Source of the DNA: Mortierella sp. BCC40632
Lineage: Eukaryota > Mortierellomycota > Mortierellomycetes > Mortierellales > Mortierellaceae
Assembly: GCA_011634665.1 (NCBI GenBank)
Contig: WAEK01000008.1
Location: 1,605,501 to 1,669,500, forward strand
Reading direction: 5' to 3'
Length of the DNA stretch: 64,000 nucleotides
The notes under the pieces were generated by a model, which was not told where the DNA came from, searched no databases, and was given only the letters and a program-made list of their open reading frames with translations. The position numbers and the translations under genes are program-made. Positions 20,320-26,404 of the stretch are shown here, piece by piece; the first letter of the stretch is position 1, and every line of letters begins with the position of its first letter.

Positions 20320-20755
20320 CAACGCGGTGGAAATTGGCCCATCTTCTTTTGTTCCAGCAAATACACTTTAGACCAGTCCAGGTGGTCTTTGGGCTTTGCC
20401 GAGCTGGGAAGTGGCTGTTACGCGTTTCAGTGATATTCAGGGTTACAGACGTCATACTGTTAATTGCCTTCAACGCGGTGGAAATTGGCCCATCTTCTTT
20501 TGTTCCAGCAAATACACTTTAGACCAGTCCAGGTGGTCTTTGGGCTTTGCCGAGCTGGGAAGTGGCTGTTACGCGTTTCAGTGATGTGATGGCAAACGTC
20601 GTACTGTTAATTGTATGACAAGTCCATCTTCTTTTTTCCAGCAGATATACCGCTTGATACTGCTTCGCATATCTTTTGGACTCTACCGAGCTAGGGAATG
20701 GCTTTCGCAACGGCAGTCTTCTTCCTACTTTATGTTCATGAAGTGATTGATATTT
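20320..20755 (+). repeat. Tandem duplication, about 151-bp period, with a third diverged copy
   Basis: The unit starting with AACGCGGTGGAAATTGGCCC occurs at about 20321 and again at 20472, with near-identity over the first ~117 bases and divergence near the unit end. A third, much more diverged copy runs from about 20622 to 20755 (shared CCATCTTCTTTT, TTTGGACTC/TTTGGGCTT, CCGAGCT-GG-A-TGGCT words). It lies just upstream of the open frame at 20847. Confidence 0.8.
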
Positions 20756-21242: not shown

Positions 21243-21453
21243 TCGACATGCTTATCCCTTAAACCGTAAGGTTTAATAGGCAAATTTGCCAGTCAAAAAA
21301 TGGGAGTGAAAGAGTGAAAGAGAGGGTTAGCATCCACTACTGGTTATGTTTGAGTTGGCCTGGCTTGCATCTCCGTGAATTGCCCATGAATTGCTTACCA
21401 ATACGGGATAATTATTGTCGAGCTCCACGCTCGACTTGGGGAGCAGAGCGCTC
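21243..21453 (-). other. 3' flank of the Fanzor-like pseudogene
   Basis: Non-coding sequence immediately downstream of the Fanzor-like stop. In TnpB/Fanzor systems a guide (omega) RNA is commonly encoded over or just after the 3' end of the nuclease gene, so this is where one would look. I see no decisive structure by eye. Confidence 0.25.
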
Positions 21454-24400
21454 CTAGTTGGTTATCCGGCGCAAGAACCATGGCCATTCCATCTTGGACA
21501 ACCAGTGGTGTACCGCCATTGCCATGTTGTGAGCCCCATTGATATCACGATCACGGCCTGCATCATGCTGGACCCCTCCTCCTGCCTTGCATACAAGATT
21601 TCTTTTCATCTCCTCTGTTTTCAAACCACAGAGGCAGCATTGTCGCGATGTCTTGAACTCGTCAACCAGGCAGACTATGATTCCCATCCCTTGTGCCTGT
21701 CATCCACAAATAAAACGATTAAATCGTTAGCTACTCTCCTCACTTTGGTCTACACAATTGCTCATATTAATGTTCATTACCATCTGGCACAGCCTCTCCA
21801 ACACAACGTATGTCCCACTCGTTCCACCGTTCAATGGTTTGAATACTCCATCCCAATCGCGAGGATAACCTGTCGCTTCGATGGTAAACTGGGCTTAGGC
21901 AGAGGCTCTTTCATATCTTCTGCAGGTTCGAGATTGGCAATGCTGACTGTTGTCCGCAAAATATGCGAGAGTCGCTGGTCGATCTCTGCAGCATGTTCTT
22001 GTTGTTTTCGAAACTTGAGCGTCTTGTACGCCATCGATCCATAGAAAGATCCAAGTGATCTGTCCGCATTGAGCTTCGACAGGACATGGTCTTCCGTGCT
22101 CTTGGAGAGCTGTTTCAGTCGAGTCTCCTCAGCAGCCTCACCTCCAGGATCGCCAATCGTTACTGGGGCTATCGTTTGCTCTACTGCATTGATCCCGTCT
22201 GTCTCCTTGGCGAGTTGCATTAGGTGTCTCATCCCCTGTGTGTGCCAGTTGTATGTCCCTCTGGAAAGGTGGTGGTTGGAAGCTTGGTTGGGCCGTGCAC
22301 TGTCAACGATCACTGCTGTGACAAGCTCCGCTATCCCTGGGTCAACCCCAATCACTACGTAGCTATCGCCAACAAGCTGTAAAACAGTCTCTTTGTTCGC
22401 AAAGAGCTCTGTCGCATACCGGATAGTGGTTCGGCCTACGTTCAGAGGATGAGCACTTGCGTTGGCTGCCTCGACTTTGATCTTGGCCTTTGAAACTTTT
22501 CAGTCTTTGGATCTAGAGGACGGTACGCAAGCAGCCGCAACTGATATCCGTCCGTTACCATCGTCCCTCGCAAGCAGTATTTCTGCTGTGGAGAAATCGC
22601 TGCTGGCATGCTTTCTTTCTCGATCTGGCAACTTTTGGTTTTCTTCAGAATTGCAATCCTCTCCTTTGTCATCTCGACAAATTGAGTCTTTAGTTGACCA
22701 TATCGTCTCTTGGCTTCACTCTCGTCGCCCTGAGCTACTGCCGTCGAGCTTTCTGCTCTTTTTCGCCCTGGCAATCTCTGGGCTGCCTCCCTCGAGCTCC
22801 TCTTCCGCCATTGCAAAAGAGTCGAAAAGACTTGGAACTTGAGACGATGAGGGGCCTCCCAACACAGGTAGTCTTGTCGTAATGCTGCTTTTTGTCTCCC
22901 ACCGACAAAGAGCCTGTAGTAGATCTCGCCTGGATGATTGGATGCCTTCGAAGATCCCTCTCTCTGGGAGCTGACTCCTAACAGGTCCTTGATTATTCCT
23001 TGTTCCACTTTGTGCTCCAAATCTTGTCGAAAAATAGCGCGGACAAAATACTGTTCAGAAATGGTGAGAAATGACGTTGACTCTTTTTTGCAGTAGGAGC
23101 TAGTTCTAGTCGGTCCTTGATGGGCAGCTGGAAGTTGAGGACTGTGAAGACCTCGGCCTGGCTAAACGCCTCTGATATTCCTTTTTCCTCTACTGCTGCC
23201 AGCATGGCTGCTCCCTCTGTTGATTGTGCCCATCCTGGGTTCAGCCGACACACCTAGAATATTAGTTTTAGTTAACAACTAAAAAAAAAAAAAAAGAGCA
23301 TGAACCACTTACTCGTTTGATCAACTCGGGGACAAACTCGACAAACGTTTTGCACAACATACTGTACAGATTCCGGCCAGAACTCTCAAAAAAACACTGT
23401 GGTACTTGTCCTTGTAGGTGCGACTGGAGCCGATCTCGTTGTTGTTTGAAATTGGGGCCTGCACTCTTTGCAAAGTCGTCTACTACCTCCCTGGCTAGAC
23501 TCATGCCAACAGTCCCTCGCTTTGTTCTGTTTTCATAGTATAGCAGCATTAAGAGCTGGCGGCAAAAATCCTCCGTATCTAGGATCTGTAACTTTTTTCT
23601 GCCATCCTCTTGACTCCCCATTCACAGAGTACATGGCTGCAACAGTCTTGGCAACAAACCACCGTACGATGGCCAGTCCAATTTTTGTCGCCTCCGAGTG
23701 GCATTTGGCGAGTGCTAGCACCGTGTCGGCAATATACTTGGCAGCTCCACTGCGCTCCTCTTTGGTTTTTGAAGGCAACCTCTCCTCCAAAACTGACGCT
23801 ACTCGCCACAGAATCGGCTCGCGCTTCTGGGTAATACAGTCAGAAGTTGAGTCCAATGCTTGGTCAATTAGATTGCCAGGCGATACTCTGTTGGATGATC
23901 CTGTTCCCATTACGCTTCCTGTTCCTAGAGCCGTTTGAACTGCAAGCCTTGATGCCTTTGCTCTCGCCAACTTTTTGCATTGTCGTTTCGGTGGAGGATC
24001 TGGTGGTGCGTTTGCCTTTTTTGCTTCACTTGCTGATGCTCCTCTCTTGATACCTTGCCTACATTTGGATCAATCGAAAAAAATGTCAGTTCTCGCATCC
24101 TTTATTTTTTTAATTACATCAATCCAACCTGCAAAGTCGCATACACCTTGCCTTTTGAGAATCTGCTTGTCAGAGTCGAGTCGTTCGCCCACAGGGCACT
24201 CTTGTTGTTGTATTTTCAACCCCTTGGCCTTGTCTTTTGTGTGTTCGATGTTCCCTTGAGCCGTCTCGCCAGCAACACTTGGGTCGGAGACCTCCTCATC
24301 CTCTTCCTCATCGTGAGATCTTGGAAAATTTTCGATTAACCCCATGCCTCGAGGTTGGACAAGCTTAAAACTCGGCTTTGTTTGTCCCCTGACCGGTCGT

Positions 24401-24489
24401 TTCGTAGATCTAGGTCCACGCCATGTCGGCCCAGCGTCTTCATTTCGCTGTTCATCAACAAGCAAAAATGAAAAGGGCGCTCTAGGCAA
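21454..24489 (-). pseudogene. Degenerate Fanzor/TnpB-like RuvC nuclease gene
   Basis: Read on the minus strand, segments in different frames give a collinear Fanzor-like protein: an acidic linker, a basic putative nuclear-localisation region (about 23965-24055), a helical N-terminal part, a TDGYQL strand motif, RuvC-I as VIGVDPG (Asp codon 22341-22343), a candidate RuvC-II segment (IGMEYSN, about 21845), the VDEFKTS lead-in, a zinc-ribbon with CCLC and a single later Cys, and RuvC-III as RDINGAHN (Asp codon 21544-21546). One intron (about 23255-23311, GTAAGT...TTCTAG) splices cleanly. At least four one-base frame changes interrupt the frame: near 23608-23616 (A run), 23028-23034 (T run), 22495-22500 (A run) and 21838-21845. 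Either the gene is decayed or the assembly has homopolymer errors. It is probably continuous with the XPG-like segment upstream. Confidence 0.72.
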
Positions 24490-24511
24490 TGGTTCTAAAC
24501 CTAGATGACAT

Positions 24512-24545
<34 letters not shown>

Positions 24546-24630
24546 AGTGGACAAGTACCATTAGATATGAATCCCTGCAGCGTCGTAGGACTAAGGAGTC
24601 AAGTATCGAAAAAAAAAAAAATACTCAGTC
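24490..24630 (-). other. Intron-like A-rich spacer in the XPG-Fanzor composite
   Basis: It contains a 26-base A run (24519-24544) next to eight Ts, and a second A run near 24609-24621. A short segment between (about 24563-24595) reads as an exon-like piece, but I could not assign all splice sites in frame. Confidence 0.4.
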
Positions 24631-25352
24631 TTACTTACTTCGTGCTTTAGACTTTTCTTGCCTAATCTGAAAGTTGAGTCTGGAAAGCTCCTCGGGGAAT
24701 CTCTTTGTGGCAGCCAAGACTAGGTCCAACAGGCTGCTCGTCTCGGAAGACGTGGCTGGGAGCTTGAGAGGCGTCTCTTCCGCGTCGAGAAAGATCTTGG
24801 CCGCGGCATCAAAGTTATGCGGATCTGCATCGTGGAACTTCGTGTATCTTGCCAACAGCGCACGTGCAGTCCTTTGGCCTGCTGGTGAACGGTTCCACAG
24901 CTTCACAAGAATATTCTGGTTCTTGGTGATACCAAATCCTTTGAGGTTGTCGCAATAATCATTACCTGAAGTAATGGCAATCGTCTGCCATACCCCAAAG
25001 TCAGGAACCCCTAGTTTCTCTAGGGCTTGGTTGTCGACTGTAAAAAGATAGAATGTGGACCTGTTGCTGTAGTCTTGCCTGAGTACATGGACGTTAGGGA
25101 TGAACAGCATGTCACTATCAGTGGTCGCGACATAGATCCGTTGGCTGCTCTCCATTGCTTCATGTCTAATACAGTTGTCGGCCTCGCCAGAGCAGAGGTC
25201 GATCTCTAAAATTCCTCACGGCGCAAGGAGAGCAATTCCCGCACACCCAACTCCGAGTCAACAACCCATAATGGCACAACCCTGAGAGCCTTGGTGAAAG
25301 GCTGATTCGTCTGATTCATCGTCTTCTCATCTGAACCGCGCCCATCTAATTC
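24631..25352 (-). pseudogene. XPG/FEN-like nuclease domain at the 5' end of the Fanzor-like gene
   Basis: The minus strand shows the XPG-I signature: a GEAD motif at about 25175-25190, then TTDSDMLF at about 25108-25130. Downstream is a helix-hairpin-like region with SGNDYCDNLKGFGI, the usual XPG/FEN order of acidic catalytic residues followed by the H3TH DNA-binding part. An upstream piece (about 25215-25350, WVVDSELG) is in another frame and is joined either by an intron or by a one-base loss near 25207-25212. The frame continues towards the Fanzor-like part on the same strand with short intron-like spacers, so I read both as one composite gene. The extreme N-terminal XPG-N part is not seen; the next gene starts divergently at 25460. 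Confidence 0.7.
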
Positions 25353-25459: not shown

Positions 25460-26404
25460 ATGAGACTTATTCCCTTTATTTTTACGGCCTCGCTTGCCGC
25501 GGTTTCCAATGCTCAGTTATTTTTTTTGTAAGTTTTGTCCTCTTTAGTGCACTATCCTTCATCACCGACTTTGAACTAACACTTGTTGCCTTATTCATGT
25601 ATCTGTAGTGAGCCAATAAGTCGAACTGTTTGGACTAGTGGGATGCCACAGATCATTAGTTGGTCTAGTAACTGCACTAGCATGGGAGCAGCTGGTCGCT
25701 CTCTCAGCATTGAACTTTACAGGGGACCTGTCACTGCTCTCCAGCTTGTAACAATCCTGGGGACTCTAGACTGCACTGGGAATATCTCCAGCATGAGTGT
25801 CGCCATCCCAAGCAGCATTTCTCCAGGAAACGACTACGCTATTAGAGTTGCGACAACACCAAGTCACTCTTACTCGGCTCAATTCAGTATCAGAGGCCCT
25901 ACAGGTCCGAACACGACTACGACTGCAACTACGACAAGCACCCCAGTCTCGTCTGCACCGGATTCTAGACCCTCAACATCTCGTGATCCTAAACCCACAG
26001 GACCTAGTGCTATTAGTCCGCCTACACCCACTGAAACTAAGGAACCCACAGAATCTGGTTCTTCTGCTGGGCTAATTGGCGGCGTGGCTGGAGGGGTGGC
26101 TGTGATAATTGTAGTTGTTGTCGTTTTCATATTAAAGAGGAGGAGACGCAGAGCTTCAAAGCCAACTGAAGAGGTGGAAGAAGCGAGTATTGGAAACGCT
26201 TCGACTCAGGACAGTATTCAGGTGGAAGTCAAGTCGTCGGATTACACAACAATCGGAGAGGAGCCAGCCTTCTCTCAGCCATCAAGTCCTCTTTATCCAT
26301 CTCGTCCTTCGGCTCCTCAATACATACCTCGCTCTCCTCAAACTCTATCAAATCCAAGAAATCCTCATGCAGTGCCCCGACCCTCTAACCCTCAGGAATA
26401 CTAA
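25460..26404 (+). CDS. Kre9/KNH-like domain cell-surface membrane protein 2
   Basis: Exons 25460-25527 and 25609-26404, phase 2, 287 residues. A signal peptide (MRLIPFIFTASLAAVSNAQ) precedes a Kre9/Knh1-type Ig-like domain: EPISRTVWTSGMPQIISWSS, CTSM, SLSIELYRG, CTGN, IPSSISPGNDYAIRV and YSAQFSI. A Thr/Ser/Pro-rich stalk (about residues 130-200), one transmembrane helix (GGVAGGVAVIIVVVVVFIL region), a run of Arg/Lys stop-transfer residues and a Pro-rich cytoplasmic tail of about 85 residues follow. It is probably a wall-associated or sensor-type surface protein; the ligand is unknown. AATAAA lies at 26450-26455, about 46 bases past the stop. It is a paralog of the gene at 15442. Confidence 0.85.

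What the first reader, a model, noticed from the sequence alone, without database searches (positions are those of the whole stretch)
21454..25352. Composite XPG/FEN-like plus Fanzor/TnpB-like nuclease gene
One strand carries, in collinear order with only short intron-like gaps, an XPG-I signature (GEAD, then TTDSDMLF, then SGNDYCDNLKGFGI) and a Fanzor-like RuvC nuclease (GVDPG, VDEFKTS, CCLC zinc ribbon, RDINGAHN) separated by an acidic linker and a basic nuclear-localisation-like stretch. Fanzors are known eukaryotic RNA-guided relatives of TnpB. I know of no described system in which a flap-type structure-specific nuclease precedes a Fanzor in one polypeptide. If intact homologs exist, RNA-guided cleavage coupled to flap processing during transposition would be a new arrangement. 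This copy is broken.
Basis: partly seen in the sequence, partly recalled or inferred. Interest (0 to 1): 0.88.

Follow-up and report, generated by a model that had tools for sequence, protein, structure and literature searches.

The report
Flap-nuclease–Fanzor fused transposon protein
This stretch is a broken copy of a fungal jumping gene whose intact relatives encode one predicted protein joining a flap-cutting type of DNA nuclease to a Fanzor, a relative of the CRISPR cutter Cas12; full-length versions are on record in two other fungi, and the pair is predicted to be RNA-guided and would likely cut a chosen site and then trim the ends so that the jumping gene is copied in.

Summary
The window holds a 5'-truncated, decayed copy (21253-25199, minus strand) of a TIR/TA-flanked transposon. 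Its one recognisable gene joins an XPG/Rad2 (FEN1/EXO1-type) nuclease to a Fanzor RuvC nuclease. In this genome 30 of 48 zinc-ribbon hits have an XPG locus upstream on the same strand, 26 of these 2.6-3.3 kb away. One copy reads openly for 1302 aa through five exons. Predicted full-length proteins with both halves are on record in Actinomortierella ambigua (1418 aa) and the aphelid Amoeboaphelidium protococcarum (1119 aa). One family profile matches solved flap nucleases with its N-terminal part and solved Fanzor/TnpB with its C-terminal part. Seven XPG carboxylates and the Fanzor DPG/alternative-glutamate fingerprint are kept in the main alignment, and both halves evolved under purifying selection. 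My literature searches found no description of this fusion. Likely mechanism (inferred): guided cutting, then 5'-end or flap resection in cis, favouring copying of the element by recombination. RNA guidance, nuclease activity and the role of the XPG half are untested; the guide-RNA signal is inconclusive.

The parts
21253..21284 (-). 3' terminal inverted repeat incl. TA border (TATCCCTTAAACCGTAAGGTTTAATAGGCAAA on + strand)
   Evidence: exact match at 6 other loci and 1-3 mismatches at 9 more; boundary seen by comparing copies
21285..21453 (-). 3' untranslated region; candidate guide-RNA region (unproven)
   Evidence: A (L031) versus B (L041, L045) mismatch 0.30 incl. TIR, about 0.37 without it (50 of 135 aligned bases, plus gaps), against 0.42-0.54 in introns; fold z -2.96 for 21253-21520 but not an outlier in tiled windows
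21454..21696 (-). exon 5: RuvC-II alternative glutamate (VDEFKTS), zinc ribbon, RuvC-III (RDINGAHN), stop TAG
   Evidence: PF07282 E 1.2e-7; exon mapped from open copy L031
21697..21780 (-). intron 4 (GT-AG, 84 nt in L031)
21781..23253 (-). exon 4: Fanzor half up to RuvC-I (VDPG at 22335-22346); frame disturbed in this copy
23254..23312 (-). intron 3 (68 nt in L031; position corresponds to intron 3 of subfamily C)
23313..24053 (-). exon 3: basic linker (PPPKRQCKKLARAKA) and region with predicted helices; frame disturbed in this copy
24054..24146 (-). intron 2 (92 nt in L031)
24147..24500 (-). exon 2: acidic linker (DEEEDEEVSD)
24501..24638 (-). intron 1 (125 nt in L031)
24639..25199 (-). exon 1 remnant: XPG I-region (GEAD, TTDSD) and helix-hairpin-like region (SGNDYCDNLKGFGI); XPG N-region, start codon and 5' TIR missing
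   Evidence: 5' break by comparison with the other A copies; mapping

Best explanation
The window holds a truncated copy of a TIR/TA-flanked transposon whose intact relatives encode one predicted protein made of an XPG/Rad2 flap-type nuclease fused to a Fanzor RuvC nuclease, which is predicted to be RNA-guided and would likely act as a cut-and-resect nuclease that helps the element copy itself. Shown: the fused reading frame and architecture, its catalytic residues, the transposon ends, copies in one genome and predicted full-length single proteins in two other fungi. Inferred: a guide RNA from the element's 3' end directs the Fanzor half to the empty site or homologous allele; its staggered cut leaves 5' ends; the tethered XPG half removes the 5' strand or flap; the exposed 3' ends then favour homologous repair from an element-bearing copy over plain rejoining. 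Movement itself is presumably by a Tc1/mariner-type transposase supplied in trans.
For: XPG and RuvC hits recur together: 30 of 48 PF07282 hits have an XPG locus within 6 kb upstream on the same strand, 3 downstream, 0 on the opposite strand; the 30 use 28 of 58 XPG loci. With the family-independent model PF00867, 10 of 18 hits are followed by a zinc ribbon. Single reading frame: L031 is open for 1302 aa through 5 exons; subfamily C reads on across 4 introns, all phase 0, introns 3 and 4 corresponding to those of A; the exon 2 indel is 12 nt while intron lengths vary freely; predicted proteins P0001 and P0004. P0004 versus profile A1: probability 99, E 8.9e-18, 897 columns. Family profile versus PDB: 1a76 FEN1 1.6e-7, human FEN1 about 3e-6, Rad2 1.9e-4, EXO1 7e-4; TnpB-like L79 1.4e-9, SpuFz1 6.9e-7, TnpB 1.6e-5. 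P0004 alone: fen_arch 1.9e-5 and guided_TnpB 2.7e-6, both below curated cut-offs. XPG model pTM 0.62; best solved folds EXO1 (1.5e-7), FEN1, XPG, Rad2. Seven XPG acids and D-E-D invariant in the three sequences of A1. dN/dS A versus three B copies: XPG 0.15-0.20, linker 0.31-0.34, Fanzor 0.13-0.16. The halves diverge together, r 0.99 over 15 pairs, driven mainly by two close pairs. TIRs with TA borders. SpuFz1 leaves 5' overhangs (PMC10432273, passage); TnpB drives insertion sequences (PMC11870625, abstract).
Against: No transcript, protein or activity data. Pfam XPG models stay below their cut-offs on family members (XPG_I_2 E 6.4e-4 in a C copy; XPG_I 0.0038 in L051; none in P0001 or P0004). 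The structure model of the Fanzor half failed (pLDDT 38). The guide-RNA signal is not an outlier for subfamily A in tiled folds, and Rfam gives nothing above gathering score. P0004 has DIG, not DPG, at RuvC-I and apparently E instead of D at the second XPG acid. The window subfamily lacks the aligned fourth zinc cysteine. Cut ends differ among Fanzors: GtFz1 can leave blunt ends, NlovFz2 blunt, MmeFz2 3' overhangs (PMC10432273, passage), so 5' ends are not certain here. No copy in this genome is proven functional: the four C copies have private frame breaks, six aligned B copies show 5-6 stops in A's frame, and open L031 differs in local frame from the window copy near the end of exon 3. No listed DDE_3 hit lies inside the elements; the trans candidate is only a lead.
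Confidence: 0.6

Rival explanations
1. Two neighbouring transposon genes (an XPG nuclease and a Fanzor) that gene finders merged into one; they are made as separate proteins.
For: Only gene predictions and genomic reading frames support the join; no transcript was available. Bao and Jurka describe Mariner elements with a separate endonuclease gene beside Fanzor1 (PMC3627910, passage).
Against: The frame runs on across introns in subfamilies A and C; introns 3 and 4 correspond; the linker is under purifying selection (dN/dS 0.31-0.34); the exon 2 indel is a multiple of three; P0001 and P0004, from two phyla, are both single predicted proteins.
Confidence: 0.06
2. The composite is real, but the XPG half serves another step: it trims the guide RNA, or processes flaps and gaps left by transposition or replication, rather than resecting the Fanzor cut.
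For: FEN/XPG enzymes cut branched substrates of several kinds (general knowledge). The element has cut-and-paste type ends, whose insertion leaves gaps. Some Fanzors leave blunt or 3'-overhanging ends (PMC10432273).
Against: Tethering to a guided cutter is hard to explain if the substrate is elsewhere; the characterised Fanzor1 matched here, SpuFz1, leaves 5' overhangs (PMC10432273), a natural substrate for a 5' nuclease. Neither point is a test.
Confidence: 0.24
3. The Fanzor half has lost RNA guidance and the protein is a structure-specific or sequence-specific nuclease or regulator of transposition.
For: Guide-RNA evidence is inconclusive; library matches of the Fanzor half are confined to its C-terminal part; fold model failed.
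Against: DPG, alternative glutamate and RD are conserved between sequences 28% identical; Fanzor exons under purifying selection; SpuFz1 matches over about 310 profile positions.
Confidence: 0.1

Closest known systems
Fanzor1 (e.g. SpuFz1), known from Tc1/mariner-type elements among others (PMC3627910, PMC10432273; passages)
   Same: RuvC split by a zinc ribbon, DPG and alternative glutamate, carried by a TIR/TA element without its own transposase; profile match to SpuFz1
   Different: carries an XPG/Rad2 nuclease domain at the N-terminus in the same predicted polypeptide; about 1120-1420 aa
XPG/Rad2 family (FEN1, EXO1, XPG, Rad2)
   Same: N- and I-regions, seven carboxylates, fold match
   Different: host enzymes are free-standing repair proteins (general knowledge); here the domain is part of a mobile element and fused to a Fanzor
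TnpB of IS200/IS605 as gene drive (PMC11870625, abstract)
   Same: inferred role: guided cutting of the element-free site favours the element
   Different: TnpB has no fused end-processing nuclease (general knowledge)
Engineered Cas9TX, Cas9 fused to TREX2 (PMC8904484, abstract)
   Same: RNA-guided cutter tethered to an end-processing nuclease
   Different: man-made, a TREX2 exonuclease and Cas9; here natural, 5'/flap-type nuclease and Fanzor
Mariner PGv-1 with GIY-YIG nuclease plus Fanzor1 (PMC3627910, passage)
   Same: second nuclease in the same element as Fanzor1
   Different: there separate genes and another nuclease family

Membership tests
Fanzor | RuvC-I DPG motif (PMC10711439, section read) | tested here: met
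   A, C, P0001 by alignment; P0002, P0003; exception P0004 with DIG
Fanzor | alternative glutamate six residues before the zinc-finger Cys (PMC10711439) | tested here: met
   E1321 and C1328 of P0001 invariant in the three sequences of A1
Fanzor | C4 zinc finger and RD (PMC3627910, passage) | tested here: inconclusive
   PF07282 over cut-off in the window and P0001; RD conserved; window subfamily lacks the aligned fourth Cys
Fanzor | sequence kinship with characterised Fanzors | tested here: met
   family profile versus 8gkh E 6.9e-7 and 9b0l E 1.4e-9; a profile of three close sequences gave only a weak Cas12f match
Fanzor | omega-RNA from the element end and RNA-guided DNA cleavage | tested here: inconclusive
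   folding and conservation of the 3' end only; activity not testable here
XPG/Rad2 nuclease | N-region and I-region with seven catalytic carboxylates (assignment recalled from FEN1/EXO1) | tested here: met
   P0001 D31, D91, E195, D197, D221, D223, D294 invariant in A1; the window copy lacks the first two by truncation; P0004 apparently has E at the second
XPG/Rad2 nuclease | XPG/FEN fold | tested here: met
   AF2 pTM 0.62, mean pLDDT 68; Foldseek EXO1 1.5e-7, FEN1 1.2e-6, 38 matches with E up to 0.001
XPG/Rad2 nuclease | match to curated XPG models over their cut-offs | tested here: not met
   XPG_I_2 19.7 bits against 24.2; XPG_I 18 against 24.9 in L051; fen_arch 23.9 against 352 in P0004; in the genome scan a few composite loci reach the XPG_I cut-off
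XPG/Rad2 nuclease | 5' nuclease or flap activity | not testable with these tools
   needs protein
Tc1/mariner-type transposon | TIRs and TA target duplication | tested here: met
   TA at both borders of A and C copies that keep both ends; TIRs
Tc1/mariner-type transposon | DDE transposase in the element | tested here: not met

The most novel reading that the evidence does not exclude
A natural, old and widespread family of RNA-guided exo-endonucleases: transposons of Mortierellomycota and Aphelidiomycota evolved a Fanzor with its own FEN/EXO1-type nuclease, which cuts at a guided site and resects the ends in cis to force recombination-based copying of the element.
Probability: 0.45. Interest if true: 0.93.

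Novelty: new variant of a known kind. Interest (0 to 1): 0.86.

Why it matters
The Fanzors described in the papers I looked into are guided cutters without a second nuclease. A natural fusion to a 5'/flap-type nuclease would be, to my knowledge, the first RNA-guided nuclease of this kind with a built-in end-processing enzyme, a design that genome engineers made by hand with Cas9 and TREX2 (PMC8904484). It makes the open question of what eukaryotic Fanzors do for their transposons directly testable, since the two active sites can be knocked out separately in one protein.

Tried and rejected
Guide RNA: the 3' end folds well as one piece (z -2.96), but tiled windows do not single it out in subfamily A (-1.17 among 44; it is the lowest of 41 in C, where palindromes in the TIR may contribute), and synonymous sites at the gene end are not clearly quiet (4 of 14 changed against 369 of 799 overall); left as inconclusive. 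Fanzor half structure: model too poor for a fold search. Giant viruses: no viral contig matched the P0004 patterns. Wider spread: three protein searches scored only about 8,000 candidates each and gave P0001 twice and then P0002-P0004; of these four proteins two show both halves, and P0002 and P0003 are entries marked partial without the XPG part. A PDB search with three close sequences gave only a weak Cas12f match; the wider profile A5 worked. Literature: Fanzor with XPG gave 0 papers, Fanzor with Mortierella 0; three looser searches listed 30 of 1,419, 15 of 3,353 and 8 of 2,241 papers, none of the listed ones holding the word Fanzor, so they say little; term look-ups in four Fanzor papers showed no such fusion. 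Many subscription papers are not covered and supplements could not be read.

Rejected: misassembly (the architecture repeats at many loci and in other species); chance motif order; 25200-25352 as part of the gene.
Full report
Observation. The XPG part gives no XPG match in Pfam in the window itself; its identity rests on relatives.

The element. The window lies at G000:C8:1605501-1669500 of a 49.9 Mb genome. Comparing it with other loci shows that it is a copy of a transposon. Subfamily A copies match the window at 94-98% in the aligned pieces and the element is about 5.05 kb long in L031; four loci keep both ends, which carry an inverted repeat beginning TATCCCTTAAACCG, with TA at each border. 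Subfamily B shares these ends (both found at five loci) and is 7.1-7.2 kb long. Subfamily C copies are 98.3-98.6% identical to L033 over 4.7 kb, with different ends (TACAGTCCGG... and ...ACTGTA) and again TA at the borders. TA and CAGT-type ends are typical of Tc1/mariner elements (general knowledge; for Fanzor1 elements see PMC3627910, passages). The window copy keeps the 3' repeat at 21253-21284 but begins only inside the XPG I-region at 25199; the 5' repeat, the start codon and the N-region are gone, and the remaining frame is interrupted.

One gene, one protein. In subfamily C the reading frame passes from XPG to Fanzor across introns of 78, 90-117, 73-75 and 81 nt (the last measured in L034), all phase 0; the indel in exon 2 is 12 nt whereas intron lengths vary freely. 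Each of the four C copies has private frame breaks. In subfamily A, L031 reads openly for 1302 codons through five exons with introns of 125, 92, 68 and 84 nt; near the end of exon 3 its local frame differs from that of the window copy, so I do not claim that L031 is functional. Introns 3 and 4 lie at corresponding places in A and C although A shares only 28% identity with the C-type protein P0001. The database search with a C copy returned one protein, 1418 aa, of Actinomortierella ambigua, 56% identical over 83% of the query. A search with a fourth family (D, locus L051) returned, among three hits, a 1119-aa protein of the aphelid Amoeboaphelidium protococcarum that stands for 8 member sequences and shows both halves. 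The other two hits are entries marked partial (P0002 of Lunasporangiospora selenospora, P0003 of Mortierella sp. GBA30) in which the XPG part is not seen. Profile comparison of P0004 with alignment A1 gives probability 99 and E 8.9e-18 over 897 columns, from P0004 residue 124 to 1099.

How common it is in this genome. Of 48 PF07282 hits, 30 have an XPG locus within 6 kb upstream on the same strand, 26 of them at 2.6-3.3 kb and the others at 0.4, 2.5, 3.8 and 3.9 kb; 3 have one downstream and none on the opposite strand; the 30 use 28 of 58 XPG loci. The XPG loci came from two composite-family queries and PF00867, so the list favours composites; with PF00867 alone 10 of 18 hits are followed by a zinc ribbon. 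Eighteen zinc-ribbon hits have no XPG locus found upstream. Several unpaired XPG loci are copies of A, B or C whose ribbon is not in the list; the four strongest PF00867 hits (C2, C3, C11, C22) are unpaired and look like host repair genes (inference).

What the halves are. A profile of six sequences (A5) searched against PDB sequences matches flap nucleases with its first 300 positions (1a76 FEN1 1.6e-7, human FEN1 about 3e-6, Rad2 1.9e-4, EXO1 7e-4) and Fanzor/TnpB/Cas12 with its end (TnpB-like L79 1.4e-9, S. punctatus Fanzor1 6.9e-7 over positions 763-1076, TnpB 8bf8 and 8h1j 1.6e-5). P0004 alone gives fen_arch 1.9e-5 and guided_TnpB 2.7e-6 in NCBIfam, both far below the curated cut-offs. 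Pfam XPG models stay below their cut-offs on the proteins I scanned. The model of the XPG half of L033 (pTM 0.62, mean pLDDT 68) matches EXO1, FEN1, XPG, Rad2 and phage T5 exonuclease; 38 matches reach E 0.001. The model of the Fanzor half failed. The seven carboxylates expected of XPG nucleases (assignment recalled) are invariant in A1, as are DPG, the glutamate six residues before the zinc-finger cysteine, and RD; DPG plus that glutamate is the Fanzor fingerprint of PMC10711439 (section read). P0004 departs at two places: DIG for DPG and apparently E for D at the second XPG acid.

Selection. Between A (L031) and B copies, codon positions 1/2/3 differ at 0.21/0.20/0.50 in the XPG exon and 0.21/0.15/0.50 in exon 4, introns at 0.42-0.54 (L041 and L045). 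Estimated dN/dS for three B copies is 0.15-0.20 (XPG), 0.31-0.34 (linker) and 0.13-0.16 (Fanzor). Both nucleases and the linker were thus kept by selection. Normalised similarity of the two halves correlates over 15 pairs of six families (r 0.99, rank 0.90), largely because of the two close pairs.

Guide RNA. Characterised OMEGA systems take their guide scaffold from the transposon end (PMC10432273, passages). Here the 268 nt at the 3' end fold better than shuffles (z -2.96), but in tiled 220-nt windows the end is unremarkable for A (-1.17 among 44) and lowest of 41 for C (-2.46); no Rfam family reached its gathering score. Inconclusive.

Mechanism, inferred. SpuFz1, the characterised Fanzor1 that the profile matches, leaves 5' overhangs; GtFz1 can also leave blunt ends, NlovFz2 leaves blunt ends and MmeFz2 3' overhangs (PMC10432273, passage). 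TnpB cleavage of element-free copies spreads insertion sequences (PMC11870625, abstract). A FEN/EXO1-type nuclease tethered to such a cutter would remove the 5' strand at the cut, favouring homologous repair from an element-bearing copy. The man-made parallel is Cas9TX, Cas9 fused to TREX2 (PMC8904484, abstract). Alternatives are that the XPG half trims RNA or transposition intermediates. The transposase is presumably supplied in trans: no listed DDE_3 hit lies inside the nine A and B elements with both ends, and a DDE_3 hit lies 3.1 kb inside a similar TIR at C8:1300115, but the 1.45 kb fetched beyond it holds no 3' TIR core with fewer than 4 mismatches in 11.

Verdict. A real composite gene and a real family; known parts in a new fusion. 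Architecture: about 0.93. RNA guidance: likely by kinship. Role of the XPG half: open.

Noticed in passing
window 20320-20590: A direct repeat of roughly 115 bases with a period of about 151 (two near-identical copies beginning caacgcggtggaaattggcc), seen by eye.
   Followed up: no
window 25580-26404 (+): Neighbouring open frame with a Kre9/KNH-like domain (E 4.5e-7), a Ser/Thr-rich part and a transmembrane-like segment (by eye), next to the truncated end of the element.
   Followed up: no
L041 7476-8396 (-): The subfamily B element in L041 holds a second open frame of 306 aa upstream of the composite gene, absent from the shorter A and C elements; no Pfam match.
   Followed up: partly
L050 289-5471 (G000:C5:2901500-2911000): A DDE_3 transposase piece (E 1.2e-10) beside a Fanzor relative with no XPG part recognised and another frame that looks Fanzor-like by eye.
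   Followed up: partly
G000:C8:1300115-1303677: A TIR like that of subfamilies A and B, with a DDE_3 transposase hit 3.1 kb inside on the same strand; possible helper element.
   Followed up: partly
L036 2-1309 (-): A reverse-transcriptase-like frame (named by eye) close to one subfamily C copy.
   Followed up: no
P0004: The aphelid protein keeps the alternative glutamate but has a TnpB-like DIG at RuvC-I, which may help root the family.
   Followed up: no
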